DNA of 64,000 nucleotides from Blastococcus aggregatus (lineage in GTDB: Bacteria; Actinomycetota; Actinomycetes; Mycobacteriales; Geodermatophilaceae). The stretch covers positions 434,001-498,000 of the forward strand of contig NZ_OBQI01000003.1 in assembly GCF_900221005.1 (NCBI RefSeq), read 5' to 3'. Below, piece after piece: positions 1,842-40,506 of this stretch; the first letter of the stretch is position 1, and every line of letters begins with the position of its first letter. The translations under genes and the position numbers were made by a program. Below the pieces are notes generated by a model that did not search any database, was not told where the DNA came from, and saw nothing but the letters and a program-made list of their open reading frames with translations.

Positions 1842-2041
1842 CCGGCCGTCCGGGGATGGGGCTACCGCCCCGGGGGGAATGCAGGGTAGGGTTCTGCTCG
1901 GTCGCTGTTGTACCTCTGCTCGTTCTCGAACGTCCGCAGTCGTCTCTGCCCTGACGTTCCTCTCGGTCCTGCCGGTCGGTGCGGCGGCCCCGGATCAGCG
2001 AGTGCCGATCCGGTCACCCCCAGCACGGAAGAAGTAACGAC

Positions 2042-2245
2042 ATGGCTCAGGGCACTGTGAAGTGGTTCAACGCGGAGAAGGGCTTCGGGTTCATCGCCCA
2101 GGACGGCGGCGGCGCCGACGTCTTCTGCCACTACTCCGCCATCGTCAGCGACGGCTACCGCTCGCTCGACGAGGGCCAGCAGGTCGAGTTCGACGTCACG
2201 CAGGGCCAGAAGGGCCCGCAGGCGGAGAACGTTCGCCCCATCTGA
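2042..2245 (+). CDS. Cold-shock protein, CspA family
   Basis: A single 67-residue cold-shock domain that binds single-stranded RNA and DNA and acts as an RNA chaperone. RNP1 is KGFGFI (residues 13-18); RNP2 is VFCHY (27-31), with Cys where Val is usual. The ATG at 2042 follows GGAAGAAG. An in-frame upstream extension to 1979 has no family match and is not used. About 200 bases of non-coding DNA precede it, consistent with the long leaders of cold-shock mRNAs, though I cannot place its promoter. A strong hairpin follows. Confidence 0.95.
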
Positions 2246-2259
2246 TCTGAACTGATCCC

Positions 2260-2300
2260 CGACGGGGGTCACGGCGCCTCGTGCGCCGTGGCCCCCGTCG
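2260..2300 (+). terminator. Intrinsic-type terminator hairpin after the cold-shock gene
   Basis: Arms 2260-2277 and 2283-2300 pair over 18 bp with one wobble around the 5-base loop CTCGT. There is no T-tract, as usual at this GC content. It sits between the convergent cold-shock and flavodoxin genes and could stop both. Confidence 0.88.
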
Positions 2301-2340
2301 GCGTTTCCGGGGTCAGCAAGCCCGGGGTCGGGAACGCCGG

Positions 2341-2781
2341 CTACAGGCTCACCGCCACGGTCGCGGCCAGCTCCCGGACGGCGTCCAGGTCGGCCGGTGA
2401 CCCGGCCCCCGTGAGGCTCAGCGGCGCGGCCACCTGCTTCCAGCGCAGCGCCCCCGTGATCCGGGCGATGCTGGCCAGCGCACCGGCGGTGTCGTCGTTG
2501 CCGTGCACGTAGACCCCGTACGGCAGCCCTCCCGTGGCGTCCAGGCACGGGTAGTAGACGGTGTCGAAGAAGTGCTTGAGCGCGCCGGACATGTAGCCGA
2601 TGTTGGCCGGCGTCCCGAGCAGCACGCCGTCGGCGGCCAGCACGTCGGCCGCGCCCGCCGACAGCGCCGGCCGCAGCACCAGCTCGGTGCCCTCGGCCAG
2701 CGCCACCCCCTCCTTCACCGCTTCGAGCACCGCCTGGAGCGCGGGCGAGGGCGTGTGGTGGACGACGAGCAGACGCGGCAT
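2341..2781 (-). CDS. Flavodoxin family protein
   Basis: A 146-residue protein with the flavodoxin/NADPH-dependent FMN reductase fold. The N-terminal strand with a phosphate-loop-like stretch (LLVVHHTPSPALQAVL, residues 4-19) would hold FMN phosphate. DGVLLGTPANIGYMSGALKHFFD (about 52-74) is the family segment contacting the isoalloxazine ring. It probably carries electrons or reduces quinones in the cytoplasm. It is the last gene of a leftward run, 26 bases after the anti-sigma gene, so it may be co-transcribed with the sigma/anti-sigma pair. The substrate cannot be told. Confidence 0.85.
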   Translation of the reverse strand: MPRLLVVHHTPSPALQAVLEAVKEGVALAEGTELVLRPALSAGAADVLAADGVLLGTPANIGYMSGALKHFFDTVYYPCLDATGGLPYGVYVHGNDDTAGALASIARITGALRWKQVAAPLSLTGAGSPADLDAVRELAATVAVSL

Positions 2782-2807
2782 GCGGAGATCATCCCGCGCC
2801 GCTGCCG

Positions 2808-3623
2808 TCAGCTGGGCAGCGAGCCGCGGGCGACGACGTCGGTGGGCGCCTCGGGTGCCCGCCGTCCGGGCTCCAGGCTGATCCCGTAGCCGGGGAAGTC
2901 GTCGGCCCCCTCCACCTCCAGGGTGCGCAGCTGCAACCCGTCCTGGGTGACGTCGAACGCGCCCAGCGCCTTCGGGGTGCCCTGGTCCAGGCCCCAGAGG
3001 ACGTAGGTCTCGTCGGCGCGGTCGTTGGCCGGCAGCGCGTGGCTGATCAGCTGCACGCCGTCGTCGCGGGCGAGCAGAGTGGCCATCGTCCGGCCGTCGG
3101 GCGCGGCGACCGGGACGACCATTGCCGGGCCCGGGCGCAGCAGCTCCTCTACCATGGCCGCCTCCGAAGCAGCGGCCTGCCGGGCCTCGTTCCGGTCGCC
3201 CATGAGCACGGCAGTCCAGCCCCCGAGGCCGACGACCGCGGCGACGGCGGCCGCCACCAGCACCGCCGTCCAGCGACGACGGGGCATCGGCACGGCCGCG
3301 GGCGCGGGTGAAGACGCAGGTGCGGGTGCGGGTGCGGGTGCAGTTCGCGCGGCCGGAGCTGCCGGGGCGTCCTGCGGCGTGCGGGCCACCTCGGCGCGCA
3401 GCCGCTCCCCCAGCGCCCGCGGCGGCTCGGCGGACGGCGCCGCGCCGGCCAGGGCCGCCATGACCTCGGTCGTCTGCTCGACCACCTGCCGGCAGCGCGC
3501 GCAGCCCGCCAGGTGCCGGGCGAACACCTCGGCATCCTCCGGCTCCAGGGCGTGCAGCGCCCAGCCGACCGCCAGCTCCTCGGACGCCTCGCCGTGCCCG
3601 CGGCCGGGCAGAGCGGCGCTCAT
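2808..3623 (-). CDS. Zinc-type anti-sigma factor (RskA-like), membrane bound
   Basis: A 271-residue anti-sigma factor for the sigma factor encoded just upstream. The cytoplasmic N-terminus carries the zinc anti-sigma motif HxxxCxxC (H37, C41, C44). A Pro/Ala-rich linker (about 94-112), encoded by GCGGGT-type hexanucleotide repeats at 3316-3342, leads to one transmembrane helix (118-141). The extracytoplasmic part resembles the RskA C-terminal domain. The start codon overlaps the sigma stop as ATGA, so translation is coupled. RskA-type proteins release their sigma factor after regulated proteolysis; the signal here is unknown. Confidence 0.92.
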   Translation of the reverse strand: MSAALPGRGHGEASEELAVGWALHALEPEDAEVFARHLAGCARCRQVVEQTTEVMAALAGAAPSAEPPRALGERLRAEVARTPQDAPAAPAARTAPAPAPAPASSPAPAAVPMPRRRWTAVLVAAAVAAVVGLGGWTAVLMGDRNEARQAAASEAAMVEELLRPGPAMVVPVAAPDGRTMATLLARDDGVQLISHALPANDRADETYVLWGLDQGTPKALGAFDVTQDGLQLRTLEVEGADDFPGYGISLEPGRRAPEAPTDVVARGSLPS

Positions 3624-4264
3624 CGGATGCTCCCGTCGGTCGGCGCGGCGGTGCTGCGGCCGTCGCCGGCCGGCCCGCCGCTGCTGCCGAGGTCGACGCG
3701 CAGCTTGCGCATCCCCGCCAGCATGCGGGTCTTCACCGTGCCCAGCGGGACCCCGGTCAGGGCCGCCACCTCCCGCTGCGTGTAGCCGCCGTAGTAGGCC
3801 AGGCCCAGCGCCTCCCGTTGCGCGGGCGGCAGCTCGCCCAGGGCGGTGCGGACCTGCTGGGAGACCACCCGGTCGACGGCCTGCTCCTCGGCGTCCACGG
3901 TTGCCGTCGGTGCGCTCAGCGCCATGTCGTCCTCCGCCCGGCGGCCGCGCCGCCGGTGTCCCTCCTCGCGGCGCACCGCGTCGACCGCCTTGTGGTGCAC
4001 CATCGCCAGCAGCCAGGAGGAGACGGCGGCCCGCCGCTCGTCGAAGGCACCGGGGGTGCGCCACACCGACAGGAACACCTCCTGGACGACGTCCTCGGCG
4101 AGCCCGTCGTCCAGCAGGATGCGCCGGGCCAGCGCGAACGCCTGGCGACCGAACATCTCGTACAGCTCGTCGACGGCGCGGCGATCTCCCGCGCCGATGC
4201 GGACCAGCAGGGCCGCAGCGGCCGGGTTCTCCGGCCGACGTGCCGGTTCGTCCACGGACGCCAC
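3620..4264 (-). CDS. RNA polymerase sigma factor, ECF (SigK-like)
   Basis: About 214 residues from the GTG at 4264. Region 2 spans roughly residues 30-100 (AEDVVQEVFLSVWR and a WLLAMVHHKAVDAVRR segment) and region 4 roughly 140-190, with the helix-turn-helix TQREVAALTGVPLGTVKTRM. A longer frame reaches an ATG at 4381, but that extension is Arg/Pro rich, lacks family similarity and has no ribosome site. The start is therefore a judgement from family length. The stop overlaps the anti-sigma start, a standard coupled pair resembling SigK/RskA. Target promoters are not evident; the adjacent channel and flavodoxin genes are candidates. Confidence 0.92.
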   Translation of the reverse strand: MASVDEPARRPENPAAAALLVRIGAGDRRAVDELYEMFGRQAFALARRILLDDGLAEDVVQEVFLSVWRTPGAFDERRAAVSSWLLAMVHHKAVDAVRREEGHRRRGRRAEDDMALSAPTATVDAEEQAVDRVVSQQVRTALGELPPAQREALGLAYYGGYTQREVAALTGVPLGTVKTRMLAGMRKLRVDLGSSGGPAGDGRSTAAPTDGSIR

Positions 4265-4429
4265 GGTATCCGCCCGCACCCGAGAGGGAGCGGCAGCACC
4301 GCGGACGGCGGTCGGTCGGGTTCCGGCGAGAGGTCTCACGCGATTCCTCCCCGGGGTCGGTGGCACGCCTACGGGGAGCATTCGTACCCGGCACGCGTTC
4401 GGTTCAGCCGGCTCCCGGACCGAGGAGGG

Positions 4430-5278
4430 TCAGGCCCGCTCGGCGCTCGGCACCTCCGCGGGGGCGGGCTCCTCCGGCTGGTCCCTGAGGAACAGGTACC
4501 AGTAGGACGTGGACACGAAGACCACCGCGCCGACGAGGTTGCCGGCCCCGGCCAGCAGCCAGTTGAGCCCTGTCTCACCCCAGCCGACGTCGGGCACGCC
4601 CGCGAAGATCGCCGCCGGCAGGAAGAACATGTTGGCGACCACGTGGTCGAAGCCCATCGCCACGAAGGCCATGATCGGGAAGAAGATGGCCAGGATCTTG
4701 CCCGCGACGTCCTTGGCGGCCAGGGACATCCACACCGCCAGACAGACCAGCCAGTTGCAGCCGACCGCCCGCAGGAACGTCTGCCAGGCGGACTCCCCCA
4801 GTGCCTTGCCCTCGGCGATCCCGGACAGCCGCTCGTAGGTCAGCCCCGCGTTGCCCCCGGCTCCCGACGAGCCGATGACGCCGGTCTGCACGGCCAGGAA
4901 GTAGGCGACGAGCAGCGCGCCCAGCAGGTTGCCCAGCAGGACCAGCGAGAGGTTCTTCGCGACGTCGCCCACGCCGAGCTTGCCGCGCATCGCACCGAGC
5001 GGGACCAGGGCCATGTTGCCGGTGGCCAGGTCGGACCCGGCGATGAGCACCAGGACGAGACCGAGGGTGAAGACCGCGCCGGTGAACAGCGTCGGCAGGG
5101 TGCCCCAGGTGTCGGGATCCAGCCCGGAGGAGACGGCGATGGCCACCAGCCCGCCGAAGGCGATGTAGGCCCCGGCGAGGAAGGCGCTGACCAGCACCTT
5201 GTCCCACGTCCGGTGCGTCTTCTTCGCACCGGTCGCGGCTGCGACCCGGGCGATCTCCTGCGGTTCGCGTGTCGTCAT
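4430..5278 (-). CDS. Formate/nitrite transporter family channel (FocA/NirC-like)
   Basis: A 282-residue integral membrane protein of the FNT family, pentameric channels for formate, nitrite or related small anions. About six helices can be drawn. Family segments include AFLAGAYIAFGGLVAI (about 32-47), GSDLATGNMALVPLGAM (about 81-97) and GFDHVVANMFFLPAAIF (about 209-225). The last holds the conserved HxxxN-type pore region. It lies upstream of the sigma gene on the same strand with a 165-base gap, so co-transcription is possible but unproven. Which anion it carries cannot be read from sequence. Confidence 0.93.
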   Translation of the reverse strand: MTTREPQEIARVAAATGAKKTHRTWDKVLVSAFLAGAYIAFGGLVAIAVSSGLDPDTWGTLPTLFTGAVFTLGLVLVLIAGSDLATGNMALVPLGAMRGKLGVGDVAKNLSLVLLGNLLGALLVAYFLAVQTGVIGSSGAGGNAGLTYERLSGIAEGKALGESAWQTFLRAVGCNWLVCLAVWMSLAAKDVAGKILAIFFPIMAFVAMGFDHVVANMFFLPAAIFAGVPDVGWGETGLNWLLAGAGNLVGAVVFVSTSYWYLFLRDQPEEPAPAEVPSAERA

Positions 5279-37361: not shown

Positions 37362-38225
37362 TCAGTCTCGCGCAGCCCGGGCGGGTGGGGAGGACGTCCG
37401 CCGGGCGGCGAGCACCCGGCCGATCTGCCGCCAGTAGGTCCCCGGCCGCAGCCGGACCAGCGCGTCGGGCACCCGCGCGCTCAGCCCGATGAGCAGCCGC
37501 GGACGGCGGTTCTCGATGGCGGCCACGATCTGCGCGGCGGCCTTCTCCGGCGGCATGCGCAGCAGCTTGGCCATCTGCTCGCGTCCGGCGGCGACCTCCG
37601 CGGGGTCCACCCCGGAGCCCAGCCGCGCGCTCTCGGCGATGCGGGTGCGGATGCCGCCGGGGTGGACGACGGTCACGCCCACCCCGTCGTCGGCGAGTTC
37701 GTGCCGCAGGGACTCGCTGAAGCCCCGGACGGCGAACTTGCTGGCGGCGTAGGCGGCCTGCCCCGGCGGGGCGAAGATGCCGAAGATGCTGGAGACGTTG
37801 ACCAGGTGCGAGCCCGGGTGGGCCTTGAGCACCGGCAGCAGGGCCGCGGTCAGCCGGACCACCGCCCGGAAGTTGATCGCCATCACCCAGTCGAACTCCT
37901 CGAGGGTGACCTGGTCGAACCGCCCGCCGAGCGCGACGCCGGCGTTGTTGACCAGCAGGGTGGTCTCCGGGTGGGCGGCCACCAGGGCCGCGCCCAGCGC
38001 GTCGGTGGCCGCCTCGTCCGCGAGGTCGGCGAGGTGGGTGGTCACGGACAGCTGCGGGTGGGCGGCGCGGATGCGGTCGGCGACACCGGCGAGCCGTTCG
38101 GCGTCGCGGTCGACCAGCACGAGGGAGCTGCCGCGGTCGGCCAGCTGGACGGCGAGCGCCTCGCCGATGCCGCTGGCCGCGCCGGTGACGACGGCCGTGC
38201 CGCCCGCGAACCGGTAGGCGTCCAT
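37362..38225 (-). CDS. Short-chain dehydrogenase/reductase downstream of ethA
   Basis: A 287-residue classical SDR. TGAASGIG (14-21) binds the nucleotide, NNAG is at 93-96, and the catalytic Ser (145/146), Y159 and K163 (YAASK) are intact. The C-terminal extension is basic, seen in SDRs that act on lipids or steroids. Its ATG shares one base with the ethA stop (TGATG), so it is translationally coupled to the Baeyer-Villiger monooxygenase. A route from alcohol to ketone (SDR) to ester (monooxygenase) is a natural inference. Confidence 0.92.
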   Translation of the reverse strand: MDAYRFAGGTAVVTGAASGIGEALAVQLADRGSSLVLVDRDAERLAGVADRIRAAHPQLSVTTHLADLADEAATDALGAALVAAHPETTLLVNNAGVALGGRFDQVTLEEFDWVMAINFRAVVRLTAALLPVLKAHPGSHLVNVSSIFGIFAPPGQAAYAASKFAVRGFSESLRHELADDGVGVTVVHPGGIRTRIAESARLGSGVDPAEVAAGREQMAKLLRMPPEKAAAQIVAAIENRRPRLLIGLSARVPDALVRLRPGTYWRQIGRVLAARRTSSPPARAARD

Positions 38226-39706
38226 CAGGCCACCGCCCGCTCGGTGCGGACCGGCGCCGCGCTGAACGTGATGCCCTCGTCCTCGAGCGGACCGCGCCGC
38301 ATGAGCTGGACGTCCCGGATGTAGTTCTGGTGCAGCCGCCACGGCGTGCGCCGCCCCTGCTTGGGCAGCTGGGCCAGGCTGCGCTGGACGTAGCCCGCGG
38401 CCAGGTCCAGGAAGGGCAGGTCGGCGCCCTCGGGCGGGGCCAGCGGGGTGGCGACGGCGAGCCCGCGCTGGTCCATGTGCTGCAGCAGCCGGCACACGTA
38501 GCGGTTCACCAGGTCGGCCTTGAGCGTCCAGGAGGCGTTGGTGTAGCCGATGACCATGGAGAAGTTGGGGACGCCGGAGAGCATCATCCCCTTGTAGGAC
38601 ACGGTCTCGGGGACGTCGACGGCCTCGCCGTCGAGGGTCAGCGTCATGCCGCCCATGGCCAGCAGGTTCAGCCCGGTCGCGGTGATGACGACGTCCGCGT
38701 CGAGGTGCTCGCCCGACTCCAGCTCGATCCCGGTCTCGGTGAACGTGGCGATCCGGTCGGTGACGATCGAGGCCTTCCCCTCCCGCAGGGTGCGGAACAG
38801 GTCGCCGTCGGGCACCAGGCACAGCCGCTGGTCCCAGGGGTCGTACGGCGGGTTGAAGTGCGTGTCGACGTCGTAGCCGGCCGGCAGCTGCTTCGCGGTG
38901 AGCCGGCGGATCAGCTTCCGGACGCCGTTCGGCCAGCGTCGGCTGGCCTGGAACAGCGCGGTGGTGGTGAGCACGTTCTTCCACCGCACGATCGGATACG
39001 CCACCTTCGCCGGCAGCCGGCTGCGCAGCAACTCCGCCAGCGGGTCCTTCCCGGGCAGCGACAAGATGTAGCTCGGCGTCCGCTGCAGCATGGTCACGTG
39101 CGCGGCGTCGTCGGCGAGGTTGGGCACCAGCGTGACCGCGGTGGCACCGCTGCCGACGACGACGATGCGCTTGCCGGTGGCGTCGAAGTCCTGCGGCCAG
39201 TGCTGCGGGTGGATCAGCTCACCCGCGAACCGCTCCTCACCGGGGAACTCCGGCCGGAAGCCCTCGTCGTAGCGGTAGTAGCCCGAGCAGACCGACAGCC
39301 ACGAGCAGGTGAGCTGGACGGTCTCCCCCGTGTCGGTGCGGCGGGCGGTCACCGTCCACCGGGCGTCGGCGCTCGACCAGTCGGCCGACAGCACCTCGTG
39401 GTGGAAGCGGATCTTCTCCTCCACGCCGTACTCGCGCGCCGTCTCCACGATGTACTCGCGGATCGAGGAGCCATCGGCGATCGCCTTGGCGCCGGTCCAC
39501 GGCTTGAAGGCGTACCCGAGGGTGAACATGTCCGAGTCCGAGCGGATGCCCGGATAGCGGAAGAGGTCCCACGTGCCGCCGATGGCCCCGCGGGACTCCA
39601 GGACGGCGTAGCTCTTGCCGGGGCACTCGACCTGCAGGTGGCAGGCGGCGCCGATGCCGGACAACCCGGCGCCGATGACGAGGACGTCCACGTGCTCGGG
39701 ACTCAT
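38225..39706 (-). CDS. ethA: EthA-like FAD-containing Baeyer-Villiger monooxygenase
   Basis: A 493-residue FAD/NADPH monooxygenase that inserts oxygen next to ketones and S-oxidises thioamides. FAD motif IGAGLSGIG (11-19), the Baeyer-Villiger fingerprint FAGELIHPQHWP (160-171) and the NADPH motif GSGATAV are present. Long stretches agree with M. tuberculosis EthA as I recall it, for example WDLFRYPGIRSDSDM, GYTNASWTLKADLV and LPKQGRRTPWRLHQNYIRD; length is almost equal (489). The ATG at 39706 has CTGGAG upstream. Divergent from an EthR-like gene and coupled to an SDR. The natural substrate is unknown. Confidence 0.95.
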   Translation of the reverse strand: MSPEHVDVLVIGAGLSGIGAACHLQVECPGKSYAVLESRGAIGGTWDLFRYPGIRSDSDMFTLGYAFKPWTGAKAIADGSSIREYIVETAREYGVEEKIRFHHEVLSADWSSADARWTVTARRTDTGETVQLTCSWLSVCSGYYRYDEGFRPEFPGEERFAGELIHPQHWPQDFDATGKRIVVVGSGATAVTLVPNLADDAAHVTMLQRTPSYILSLPGKDPLAELLRSRLPAKVAYPIVRWKNVLTTTALFQASRRWPNGVRKLIRRLTAKQLPAGYDVDTHFNPPYDPWDQRLCLVPDGDLFRTLREGKASIVTDRIATFTETGIELESGEHLDADVVITATGLNLLAMGGMTLTLDGEAVDVPETVSYKGMMLSGVPNFSMVIGYTNASWTLKADLVNRYVCRLLQHMDQRGLAVATPLAPPEGADLPFLDLAAGYVQRSLAQLPKQGRRTPWRLHQNYIRDVQLMRRGPLEDEGITFSAAPVRTERAVA

Positions 39707-39780
39707 GTCCACACTCCAGGAACGGGCCGGCCACAGGCGGCTACGGGGGTACGGCGCTGCCGCGGAACGCTGCGACGCCG

Positions 39781-39810
39781 ACGCTATCGACGCCGTGTCG
39801 AACGAGTCAA
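39781..39810 (-). promoter_or_regulatory. ethA promoter
   Basis: On the minus strand TTGACT (39810-39805), an 18-base spacer and TAGCGT (39786-39781). The same box order, spacer length and -10 sequence occur in the M. tuberculosis ethA-ethR region as I remember it. Confidence 0.68.
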
Positions 39811-39821
39811 CAGGGTGTCGA
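39795..39821. promoter_or_regulatory. Candidate EthR operator with GTGTCGA repeats
   Basis: GTGTCGA occurs at 39795-39801 and 39815-39821, 20 bases apart (two helical turns), with a related TATCGAC at 39785-39791. The repeats flank the ethA -35 box and reach the expected -35 position of ethR, so one protein could block both promoters. Mycobacterial EthR binds TGTCGA-containing repeats cooperatively. Confidence 0.65.
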
Positions 39822-39839
39822 GTTACGGCTGCGCGCCGG

Positions 39840-39845
39840 TACCCT
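39840..39845 (+). promoter_or_regulatory. ethR -10 box, leaderless arrangement
   Basis: TACCCT ends seven bases before the ethR ATG, and no ribosome site lies between. This is the spacing of a leaderless mRNA. The -35 position (about 39816-39821) coincides with the second GTGTCGA. Confidence 0.55.
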
Positions 39846-39852
39846 CGCCGGC

Positions 39853-40506
39853 ATGTCCGACGGCGCAGGCTCCCCGGTGGCCGCGGGTCGCGGCCGCCGG
39901 CCGGCACGCGCCCGGGGCGACGACCGGGAACTGCAGATCCTGGCCACGGCGGAGCGGCTGCTCGAGGAGAGGCCGCTCGGCGCCATCTCCGTCGACGACC
40001 TGGCCCGCGGCGCCGGGATCTCGCGGCCGACCTTCTACTTCTACTTCACGTCGAAGGATGCCGTCCTGCTGACGCTGCTGGACCGCGTGGTCGCGGAGGC
40101 CGACGCGACGATGAGCGCGGTCTTCGACGGCGGCGCCTCCACCGGCCCCCGGGAGGGCTGGCAGCGGGCGCTGGCGGCCTACCACGAGACCTTCCGCCGC
40201 CACCGGGCGCTCACCGTGGCGTGGGCGGAGGCCCGCTCCACCAGCGCGGAGGTGCGGGCGCTCTGGGCGGAGGTGTTCGAGCGCTGGGTGCAGCGCTGCG
40301 CCACCGCCATCGAGGCCGAGCGCGCGCGGGGGGCGGCACCCTCGGGTCCGCCGGCGCGCGACCTCGCGATCGCGCTGACCTCCATGAACGAGCGGGTGAT
40401 CTACGCATCGCTCAGCGGTGACGGGCCCGCGATCGCCGCGGACGACGTCGTCCCCGTGCTGCTGCGGGTGTGGCTGACCGCCGTCTACGGCACGCCACCG
40501 GACTGA
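39853..40506 (+). CDS. ethR: EthR-like TetR-family repressor
   Basis: A 217-residue TetR regulator. The DNA-binding part (about 22-75) with GDDRELQILATAERLLEERP and ISVDDLARGAGISRPTFYFYF is nearly the same as remembered mycobacterial EthR, and the C-terminus keeps ALTSMNERVIYASL. EthR represses the divergent ethA and is released by hydrophobic ligands. The 146-base intergenic region carries GTGTCGA repeats over both promoters. The ATG seems to be the first transcribed codon. The product likely controls the ethA-SDR-methyltransferase transcript and itself. Confidence 0.93.
   Translation: MSDGAGSPVAAGRGRRPARARGDDRELQILATAERLLEERPLGAISVDDLARGAGISRPTFYFYFTSKDAVLLTLLDRVVAEADATMSAVFDGGASTGPREGWQRALAAYHETFRRHRALTVAWAEARSTSAEVRALWAEVFERWVQRCATAIEAERARGAAPSGPPARDLAIALTSMNERVIYASLSGDGPAIAADDVVPVLLRVWLTAVYGTPPD

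What the first reader, a model, noticed from the sequence alone, without database searches (positions are those of the whole stretch)
39707..39852. ethA-ethR divergon outside mycobacteria with what looks like a conserved promoter-operator
Both proteins match M. tuberculosis EthA and EthR along their length, and the gene order is the same. In the 146-base gap the ethA promoter (TTGACT, 18 bases, TAGCGT) carries two GTGTCGA repeats 20 bases apart plus TATCGAC. From memory, the mycobacterial site has the same -35 type, an 18-base spacer, the same TAGCGT and TGTCGA repeats. ethR itself seems leaderless, with its -35 position inside the second repeat, so one bound complex would shut both genes. This points to an old conserved regulatory circuit with a natural lipid or ketone ligand rather than a drug-related one.
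Basis: partly seen in the sequence, partly recalled or inferred. Interest (0 to 1): 0.7.

Follow-up and report, generated by a model that had tools for sequence, protein, structure and literature searches.

The report
EthR operator conserved beyond mycobacteria
An actinobacterium close to Blastococcus carries the enzyme-and-repressor gene pair known from ethionamide activation in tuberculosis bacteria, with a matching DNA control site, which suggests that the switch serves ordinary metabolism and is not tied to the drug.

Summary
The gap window:39707-39852 separates divergent ethA (Baeyer-Villiger monooxygenase) and ethR (EthR_C, full-length match to solved EthR). It holds two near-palindromic 15-mers, TCRACNNNNTGTYGA, 20 bp apart (39787-39801, 39807-39821), the only such tandem found in this genome. 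The 15-mer has the form of the repeat quoted for the M. tuberculosis 55-bp EthR operator. The tandem (<=1 mismatch per site, 20-21 bp apart) is in 120 of 126 distinct divergent ethA-ethR gaps, ten named genera among them, against 0 of 2520 shuffles and 1 of 3473 control windows. Conservation is not limited to promoter boxes, and promoter geometry is shared. Site number differs: Blastococcus 1+2, Micromonospora 2+3, Mycobacterium 1+2 plus a partial third. Where the genes were separated or re-oriented, sites stayed with the promoters. The DNA-binding domain is 86% identical to M. tuberculosis EthR, the ligand domain only 38%, so the proposed natural ligand is untested and may differ by lineage. 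Binding and repression are inferred. A new member of a known kind.

The parts
38225..39706 (-). ethA: type I Baeyer-Villiger monooxygenase, 493 aa
   Evidence: Pfam FMO-like 3.3e-14; BVMO fingerprint FAGELIHPQHWP at residue 160 and two GxGxx(G/A) motifs (motif definition recalled); 55-58% identical to six mycobacterial EthA homologues
39853..40506 (+). ethR: TetR-type repressor EthR, 217 aa
   Evidence: PDB 1t56 E 3.9e-66; Pfam EthR_C 4e-43, TetR_N 6e-14; 51% identity overall, DNA-binding domain 86%, ligand domain 38%
39787..39801 (+). operator site 1, TCGACGCCGTGTCGA, inside the ethA promoter spacer
   Evidence: exact match to TCRACNNNNTGTYGA; nine of its 15 positions invariant in 26 of 26 aligned sequences (24 Blastococcus, the window genome and L002)
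39807..39821 (+). operator site 2, TCAACAGGGTGTCGA, 20 bp from site 1; its left half overlaps the ethA -35, its right half lies at the ethR -35 position
   Evidence: exact match on both strands; tandem found once in the genome
39781..39786 (-). ethA -10, TAGCGT, abutting site 1
   Evidence: ANNNTA on the + strand at this place in 24 of 24 Blastococcus, 25 of 26 Micromonospora, 37 of 42 Mycobacterium loci
39805..39810 (-). ethA -35, TTGACT, 18-nt spacer
   Evidence: same geometry across lineages
39840..39845 (+). ethR -10, TACCCT, 7 nt before the ATG (predicted leaderless transcript)
   Evidence: TANNNT 6-9 nt before an in-frame start codon in 126 of 130 loci
39714..39717 (-). Shine-Dalgarno-like GGAG of ethA (predicted leader of about 70 nt)
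   Evidence: read from the sequence
37362..38225 (-). short-chain dehydrogenase gene, abuts ethA; probable ethA-SDR operon
   Evidence: Pfam adh_short 2.3e-47; a homologue over 50% identical in 62 of 80 named loci, its position next to ethA read from the coordinates

Best explanation
The gap is an EthR operator built into two overlapping divergent promoters. Each 15-bp near-palindrome binds one EthR dimer (inferred from symmetry and from the published operator). Two dimers at 20 bp, nearly two helical turns, sit on one face of the DNA and cooperate (inferred). Site 1 fills the ethA spacer, site 2 covers the ethA -35 and the ethR -35 region, so one occupied pair blocks ethA(-SDR) and ethR together; ligand capture by EthR releases both (inferred from M. 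tuberculosis EthR). The two-site tandem is the recurring unit; Mycobacterium adds a partial third site on the ethR side, giving 3 x 15 + 2 x 5 = 55 bp, the quoted operator length. The natural job is probably control of an alcohol-ketone-ester step (SDR then BVMO) by a hydrophobic metabolite (guess).
For: Same kind of 15-mer as the repeat quoted for the M. tuberculosis operator, TCAACG(T/A)NATGTCGA (PMC9210681, passage). Tandem in 120/126 distinct divergent gaps at <=1 mismatch (90/126 exact, 123/126 at <=2), 0/2520 shuffles, 1/3473 control windows. Genome-wide in 150 genomes of the order: tandem at 20 bp in 24 of 42 EthR-positive and 3 of 108 other genomes, Fisher p 1.7e-13; the 21-bp form adds 10 EthR-positive Micromonospora-type genomes. 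The right half of site 1, part of neither promoter box, is invariant at four of its six positions in 26 of 26 sequences; the sites average 1.6 bits, the left flank 0.55, the right flank 0.83. HTH residues 45-68 are 92% identical to 1t56. Natural re-arrangements: in 3 Geodermatophilus-type genomes ethR and ethA are co-directional and an exact palindrome lies in front of ethA, with no tandem in front of ethR; in three mycobacteria where another sequence separates the genes, the ethA side keeps two sites and the ethR side one exact and one partial site. EthR4-DNA and EthR6-DNA species are listed in a review table (PMC6819514), as expected for two and three dimer sites.
Against: No binding, expression or start-site data for any non-mycobacterial member. 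The accepted M. tuberculosis model is a homo-octamer (PMC5403819, passage), not two or three dimers. Blastococcus lacks site 3 (0 of 24), Micromonospora lacks site 1 in this register (0 of 26), so the operators are not identical. The loci are not independent (24 Blastococcus, 26 Micromonospora, 38 Mycobacterium of the 126). 6 of 126 miss at <=1 mismatch; one of these (L163) faces a gene only 29% like EthA. Of 42 EthR-positive genomes 8 have neither tandem pattern: three Geodermatophilus-type, G138 (one mismatch in each site), G021, G036 and G144 (35-41% identical EthR) and G124 (not examined). Promoter boxes score below a sigma-70 consensus.
Confidence: 0.85

Rival explanations
1. Only the promoters are conserved; the repeats are -35/-10 boxes of two ordinary promoters and not a repressor site.
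For: The left half of site 2 overlaps the ethA -35 and the right half of site 2 sits at the ethR -35 position.
Against: The right half of site 1 lies inside the ethA spacer and belongs to neither promoter, yet four of its six positions are invariant in 26 of 26. Micromonospora uses another pair (sites 2+3) with the same 15-mer; its ethR -10 starts mostly 28 nt after site 2, against 17-19 nt in Blastococcus.
Confidence: 0.05
2. The palindromes are bound by another regulator, for example the SOS repressor LexA, whose actinobacterial box is TCGAAC-N4-GTTCGA (recalled).
For: Both are TCGA-rich inverted repeats.
Against: No match to that box within 3 mismatches in the gap. The tandem tracks EthR presence across genomes (24/42 against 3/108) and follows ethA/ethR through re-arrangements.
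Confidence: 0.03
3. The circuit is widespread mainly through recent horizontal transfer rather than being an old inherited circuit.
For: Patchy distribution: 42/150 genomes of the order, 14/396 of the phylum at the stated cut-offs. Nonomuraea nests in Amycolatopsis; a Solirubrobacterales MAG and an unplaced actinobacterial MAG do not branch at the base of the midpoint-rooted tree of 42 loci.
Against: Mycobacterium, Micromonospora and Geodermatophilaceae each form a supported clade with within-group diversity (mean EthR identity 75% within Blastococcus, 63% within Mycobacterium), and EthR and EthA distances correlate, r 0.88, n 99.
Confidence: 0.25
4. EthR controls a xenobiotic or drug response here too, not a metabolic step.
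For: In one Geodermatophilaceae genome an EthR paralogue follows an MFS transporter with the tandem in front of the pair (L096).
Against: The frequent partner is SDR + BVMO (SDR in 62 of 80 named loci), which reads as catabolism; the MFS case is one genome.
Confidence: 0.2

Closest known systems
EthR and the ethA-ethR operator of Mycobacterium tuberculosis (55-bp IG-55; known here through passages of PMC9210681, PMC5403819, PMC5700317, PMC3511530; the 2004 study itself was not read)
   Same: Homologous enzyme and repressor, divergent order, the same kind of 15-bp repeat, shared promoter-operator; in other mycobacteria seen here the same ethA -10 type and 18-nt spacer (37 of 42 loci). The two commonest ethA promoter positions reported in clinical isolates (PMC5700317) fall, in the relative L024, inside the TAGCGT box.
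   Different: Two sites instead of three; gap 146 nt instead of the quoted 75, because ethA has a leader with a Shine-Dalgarno-like sequence; ligand domain 38% identical; an SDR gene follows ethA; an octamer is not expected.
Mycobacterial ethR motif of Balhana et al. 2015 (PMC4482099, passages)
   Same: Conserved motif in the ethR intergenic region (MEME E 8.9e-34 over mycobacteria).
   Different: Ten mycobacterial species, one palindromic motif per gap; in the passages seen, no other families and no count of sites.
EthA2-EthR2 and MymA/VirS of M. tuberculosis (PMC13234193 passages, PMC8634040 listing only)
   Same: BVMO system with its own regulator.
   Different: Other regulators with their own operators; not compared in sequence here.

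Membership tests
EthR family | EthR C-terminal domain and TetR HTH | tested here: met
   Pfam EthR_C 4e-43, TetR_N 6e-14; PDB 1t56 E 3.9e-66
EthR family | Divergent pairing with ethA | tested here: met
EthR operator | Two copies of the 15-bp repeat quoted for IG-55 | tested here: met
   two 15-mers of the form TCRACNNNNTGTYGA at 20 bp; each differs from the quoted TCAACG(T/A)NATGTCGA at 3 positions
EthR operator | 55-bp extent with a third element on the ethR side | tested here: not met
   third site absent in the window (7 of 11 specified positions mismatch) and in 24 of 24 Blastococcus; partial in Mycobacterium (20 of 42 at <=2 mismatches)
EthR operator | Cooperative octameric binding and repression of both genes | not testable with these tools
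   needs protein and DNA
EthA (type I BVMO) | FxGxxxHxxxW(P/D) fingerprint and two Rossmann motifs (recalled definition) | tested here: met
EthA | Activation of ethionamide | not testable with these tools
   no enzyme assay
LexA/SOS box | TCGAAC-N4-GTTCGA (recalled) | tested here: not met
   no match within 3 mismatches in 39707-39852

The most novel reading that the evidence does not exclude
The EthR switch is a modular regulatory unit spread through Actinomycetota whose minimal form is two dimer sites 20-21 bp apart; lineages add or drop the outer site, and the sites travel with ethA, stay with ethR, or stand before another gene (an MFS transporter) when gene order changes. The mycobacterial 55-bp operator is then the extended form, holding three dimers rather than an octamer, and a fast-diverging ligand domain on a frozen DNA-binding domain lets each lineage sense its own ketone/ester metabolite.
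Probability: 0.5. Interest if true: 0.6.

Novelty: new member of a known kind. Interest (0 to 1): 0.5.

Why it matters
EthR is a drug-booster target in tuberculosis whose physiological role is described as unknown (PMC4482099). Relatives outside mycobacteria with the same DNA code, a two-site operator and a frequent SDR partner give a simple system in which to find the ligand class and pathway, and the site-number series makes the stoichiometry question (octamer or one dimer per site) testable.

Tried and rejected
Promoter-only conservation: rejected by column conservation. LexA box: no match. Strict sigma-70 scan: nothing in the gap. Single 15-mers as a wider regulon in the own genome: 11 other places match; 14 strand-matches in all against 6 for the reversed-pattern control. 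All 11 lie in long stop-free frames, which proves little in GC-rich DNA, so no further target is claimed or excluded. M. tuberculosis itself does not appear among 396 sampled genomes of the genus (best EthR identity 85%), so the mycobacterial comparison rests on other species and on quoted text. The native-MS paper is not held; I saw only a review's table row and reference. The octamer paper of 2004 was not read, only quotations of it. Papers were seen as passages (PMC9316172, PMC4482099, PMC5700317, PMC9210681, PMC5517500, PMC13234193, PMC5403819, PMC3511530, PMC6819514, PMC8022548, PMC4633059, PMC9044951) or as search listings. I found no description of an EthR operator outside mycobacteria in ten searches of an open-access library; most subscription papers are not in it. 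Leaderless ethR in mycobacteria was not confirmed in print. The ethA side of G155 could not be read: the stretch I printed from L186 lay inside the gene.

Full report
What is there. The 146-nt gap window:39707-39852 lies between ethA (38225-39706, -) and ethR (39853-40506, +). EthR matches the solved EthR repressor over residues 2-213 (E 3.9e-66) and Pfam EthR_C (4e-43). EthA is a type I BVMO by fingerprint (the motif is recalled) and 55-58% identical to six mycobacterial homologues. An SDR gene abuts ethA downstream. The best named relatives of the locus are Blastococcus.

The element. One 15-mer is not unusual (14 strand-matches in 4.6 Mb against 6 for the reversed control), but the tandem occurs at one place in the genome. 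A paper that quotes the original operator study gives the M. tuberculosis repeat as TCAACG(T/A)NATGTCGA, two copies in 55 bp (PMC9210681, passage): the same form, each window copy differing from it at three positions.

Is it more than chance. From genome searches I held 157 loci with EthR, 140 with distinct upstream sequence: 126 with divergent ethA, 3 with ethA on the same strand, 11 with no ethA in the locus (one of these, L142, appears cut by a contig end and carries the operator). Two or more 15-mers 20-21 bp apart are found in 120 of 126 divergent gaps with <=1 mismatch per site (90 exact, 123 with <=2), in 0 of 2520 dinucleotide shuffles and in 1 of 3473 control windows of the same loci. 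The six misses at <=1 mismatch are L006, L104, L135, L137, L143 and L163; L163 faces a gene only 29% like EthA. The loci are related: 38 Mycobacterium, 26 Micromonospora, 24 Blastococcus, 22 unnamed and 16 others. Named genera with the tandem at this stringency are Blastococcus, Modestobacter, Micromonospora, Mycobacterium, Amycolatopsis, Actinophytocola, Pseudonocardia, Kutzneria, Nonomuraea and Kineococcus (Modestobacter is a MAG). Genome-wide, in 150 genomes of the order, the 20-bp tandem is in 24 of 42 genomes with EthR (E <= 1e-25) and in 3 of 108 without (p 1.7e-13); the reversed control pattern hits one genome. The 21-bp form is in 14 genomes: ten EthR-positive Micromonospora-type genomes at the gap, and G009, G043, G118 and G130 with one-mismatch matches not at an ethR found (reversed control one genome). 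Eight of the 42 EthR-positive genomes have neither pattern: three Geodermatophilus-type, G138 (one mismatch in each site), G021, G036 and G144 (35-41% identical EthR), and G124, which I did not examine.

Promoters. On the ethA strand the order is site 2, site 1, -10. TTGAC(N) overlaps the left half of site 2, the 18-nt spacer contains site 1, and the -10 abuts site 1: seen in 24 of 24 Blastococcus, 25 of 26 Micromonospora and 37 of 42 Mycobacterium loci (the scan favours candidates with a -10, which may inflate these counts). ethR has TANNNT 6-9 nt before an in-frame start codon in 126 of 130 loci, though 4-10 nt was allowed, as expected of leaderless transcripts; this is not confirmed by mapped start sites. 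In 26 aligned sequences (24 Blastococcus, the window genome and L002) the sites average 1.6 bits, the left flank 0.55 and the right flank 0.83; nine of the 15 positions of site 1 are invariant, among them four of the six in its right half, inside the ethA spacer.

Lineage differences. Blastococcus has sites 1+2 and no site 3 (0 of 24). Micromonospora has sites 2+3 (26 of 26), 21 bp apart in ten of the eleven order-sample genomes, and no site 1 in register (0 of 26), only a degenerate remnant by eye. Mycobacterium has site 1 in 38 and site 2 in 40 of 42 at <=1 mismatch, and a third site with a better left half whose right half merges with the ethR -10 (1 of 42 at <=1, 20 of 42 at <=2 mismatches). 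Three sites at 20-bp steps span 55 bp, the quoted operator length. The reported octamer (PMC5403819) and the EthR4-DNA and EthR6-DNA species listed in a review table (PMC6819514) differ; one dimer per 15-mer agrees with the latter. This is inference.

Natural rearrangements. In three Geodermatophilus-type genomes ethR and ethA run in the same direction; there is no tandem in front of ethR, but an exact palindrome lies in the ethR-ethA gap of each; in L103, the named record of one of them, it has a two-mismatch partner 20 bp away and a TAGCGT box before ethA. In three mycobacteria a Gly-rich, PE_PGRS-like sequence (judged by eye, no family search; in G192 only a few hundred bases) stands between the genes: the ethA side keeps two sites (0-2 mismatches) and the ethR side one exact site and one with three mismatches, as the partial third site elsewhere (L183/L131, L187/L132, L185/L135). 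In G148 an ethA (69% identical to that of L024) 5 kb from ethR has its own tandem, while a second ethA-like gene (58%) is next to ethR with another. In Geodermatophilaceae URHA0031 an EthR paralogue follows an MFS transporter with a tandem (0 and 1 mismatch) in front of that pair (L096). Two sites therefore look like the working unit.

Protein side. Against 1t56 the window EthR is 51% identical overall, 86% in residues 22-78, 92% in 45-68 and 38% in the ligand domain. W103, F114, W138, W145, N179 and W207 are kept; F110, Q125, F141, M142, Y148 and N176 differ (the list of pocket residues is recalled). Q125 is one of the reported c-di-GMP contacts (PMC5517500, passage) and is Ala here. So DNA recognition is frozen and ligand sensing is free to drift: for a shared circuit, against one shared ligand. 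An SDR over 50% identical to the window's is in 62 of 80 named loci, including Micromonospora, Blastococcus, the Modestobacter MAG and two Amycolatopsis, not in the one named Mycobacterium locus; some loci are too short to tell. Alcohol to ketone to ester is a guess at the pathway.

History. EthR and EthA distances correlate (r 0.88, 99 loci). In a midpoint-rooted tree of 42 loci Mycobacterium, Micromonospora and Geodermatophilaceae are each a supported clade, Nonomuraea lies inside Amycolatopsis, and two MAGs are not basal; deeper branches are poorly supported. The distribution is patchy (42 of 150 in the order, 14 of 396 in the phylum). I read this as an old circuit with losses and some transfer.

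Verdict. A new member of a known kind with a lineage-variable operator.

Noticed in passing
L131/L183, L132/L187, L135/L185 (unnamed mycobacteria): A Gly-rich, PE_PGRS-like sequence (by eye) stands between ethR and ethA; the ethA side keeps two EthR sites, the ethR side one exact and one partial site.
   Followed up: partly
L096:1809-1843, MFS ORF 1942-3900, ethR 3968-4654: EthR paralogue of a Geodermatophilaceae genome with no ethA in the locus; the EthR tandem lies in front of an MFS_1 transporter gene that precedes ethR.
   Followed up: partly
L103:4560-4700; G057, G085, G146: Geodermatophilus-type genomes with ethR and ethA on one strand (in L103 also a methyltransferase before and an SDR after); the operator is in the ethR-ethA gap.
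   Followed up: yes
L181, L188, L192 (G148): Two ethA-like genes near ethR, 69% and 58% identical to that of L024, each with its own EthR tandem.
   Followed up: partly
L015, L074 (Micromonospora mirobrigensis): Site 1 and the ethA -10 are missing; the inferred ethA start nearly abuts site 2, so the true start or promoter must differ.
   Followed up: no
L168, L169, L170 (genomes G043, G102, G109): Second EthR-like copy with an in-frame stop in the matched frame, no ethA in the locus and a different TCAAC/TCGAC-rich upstream region.
   Followed up: no
L143: A short tandem repeat (about 26 nt) lies in front of the inferred ethR start.
   Followed up: no
L163 (G583, same phylum but another class): EthR relative (50%) facing a gene only 29% like EthA, with a recognisable but weaker tandem and a TATAGT box.
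   Followed up: no
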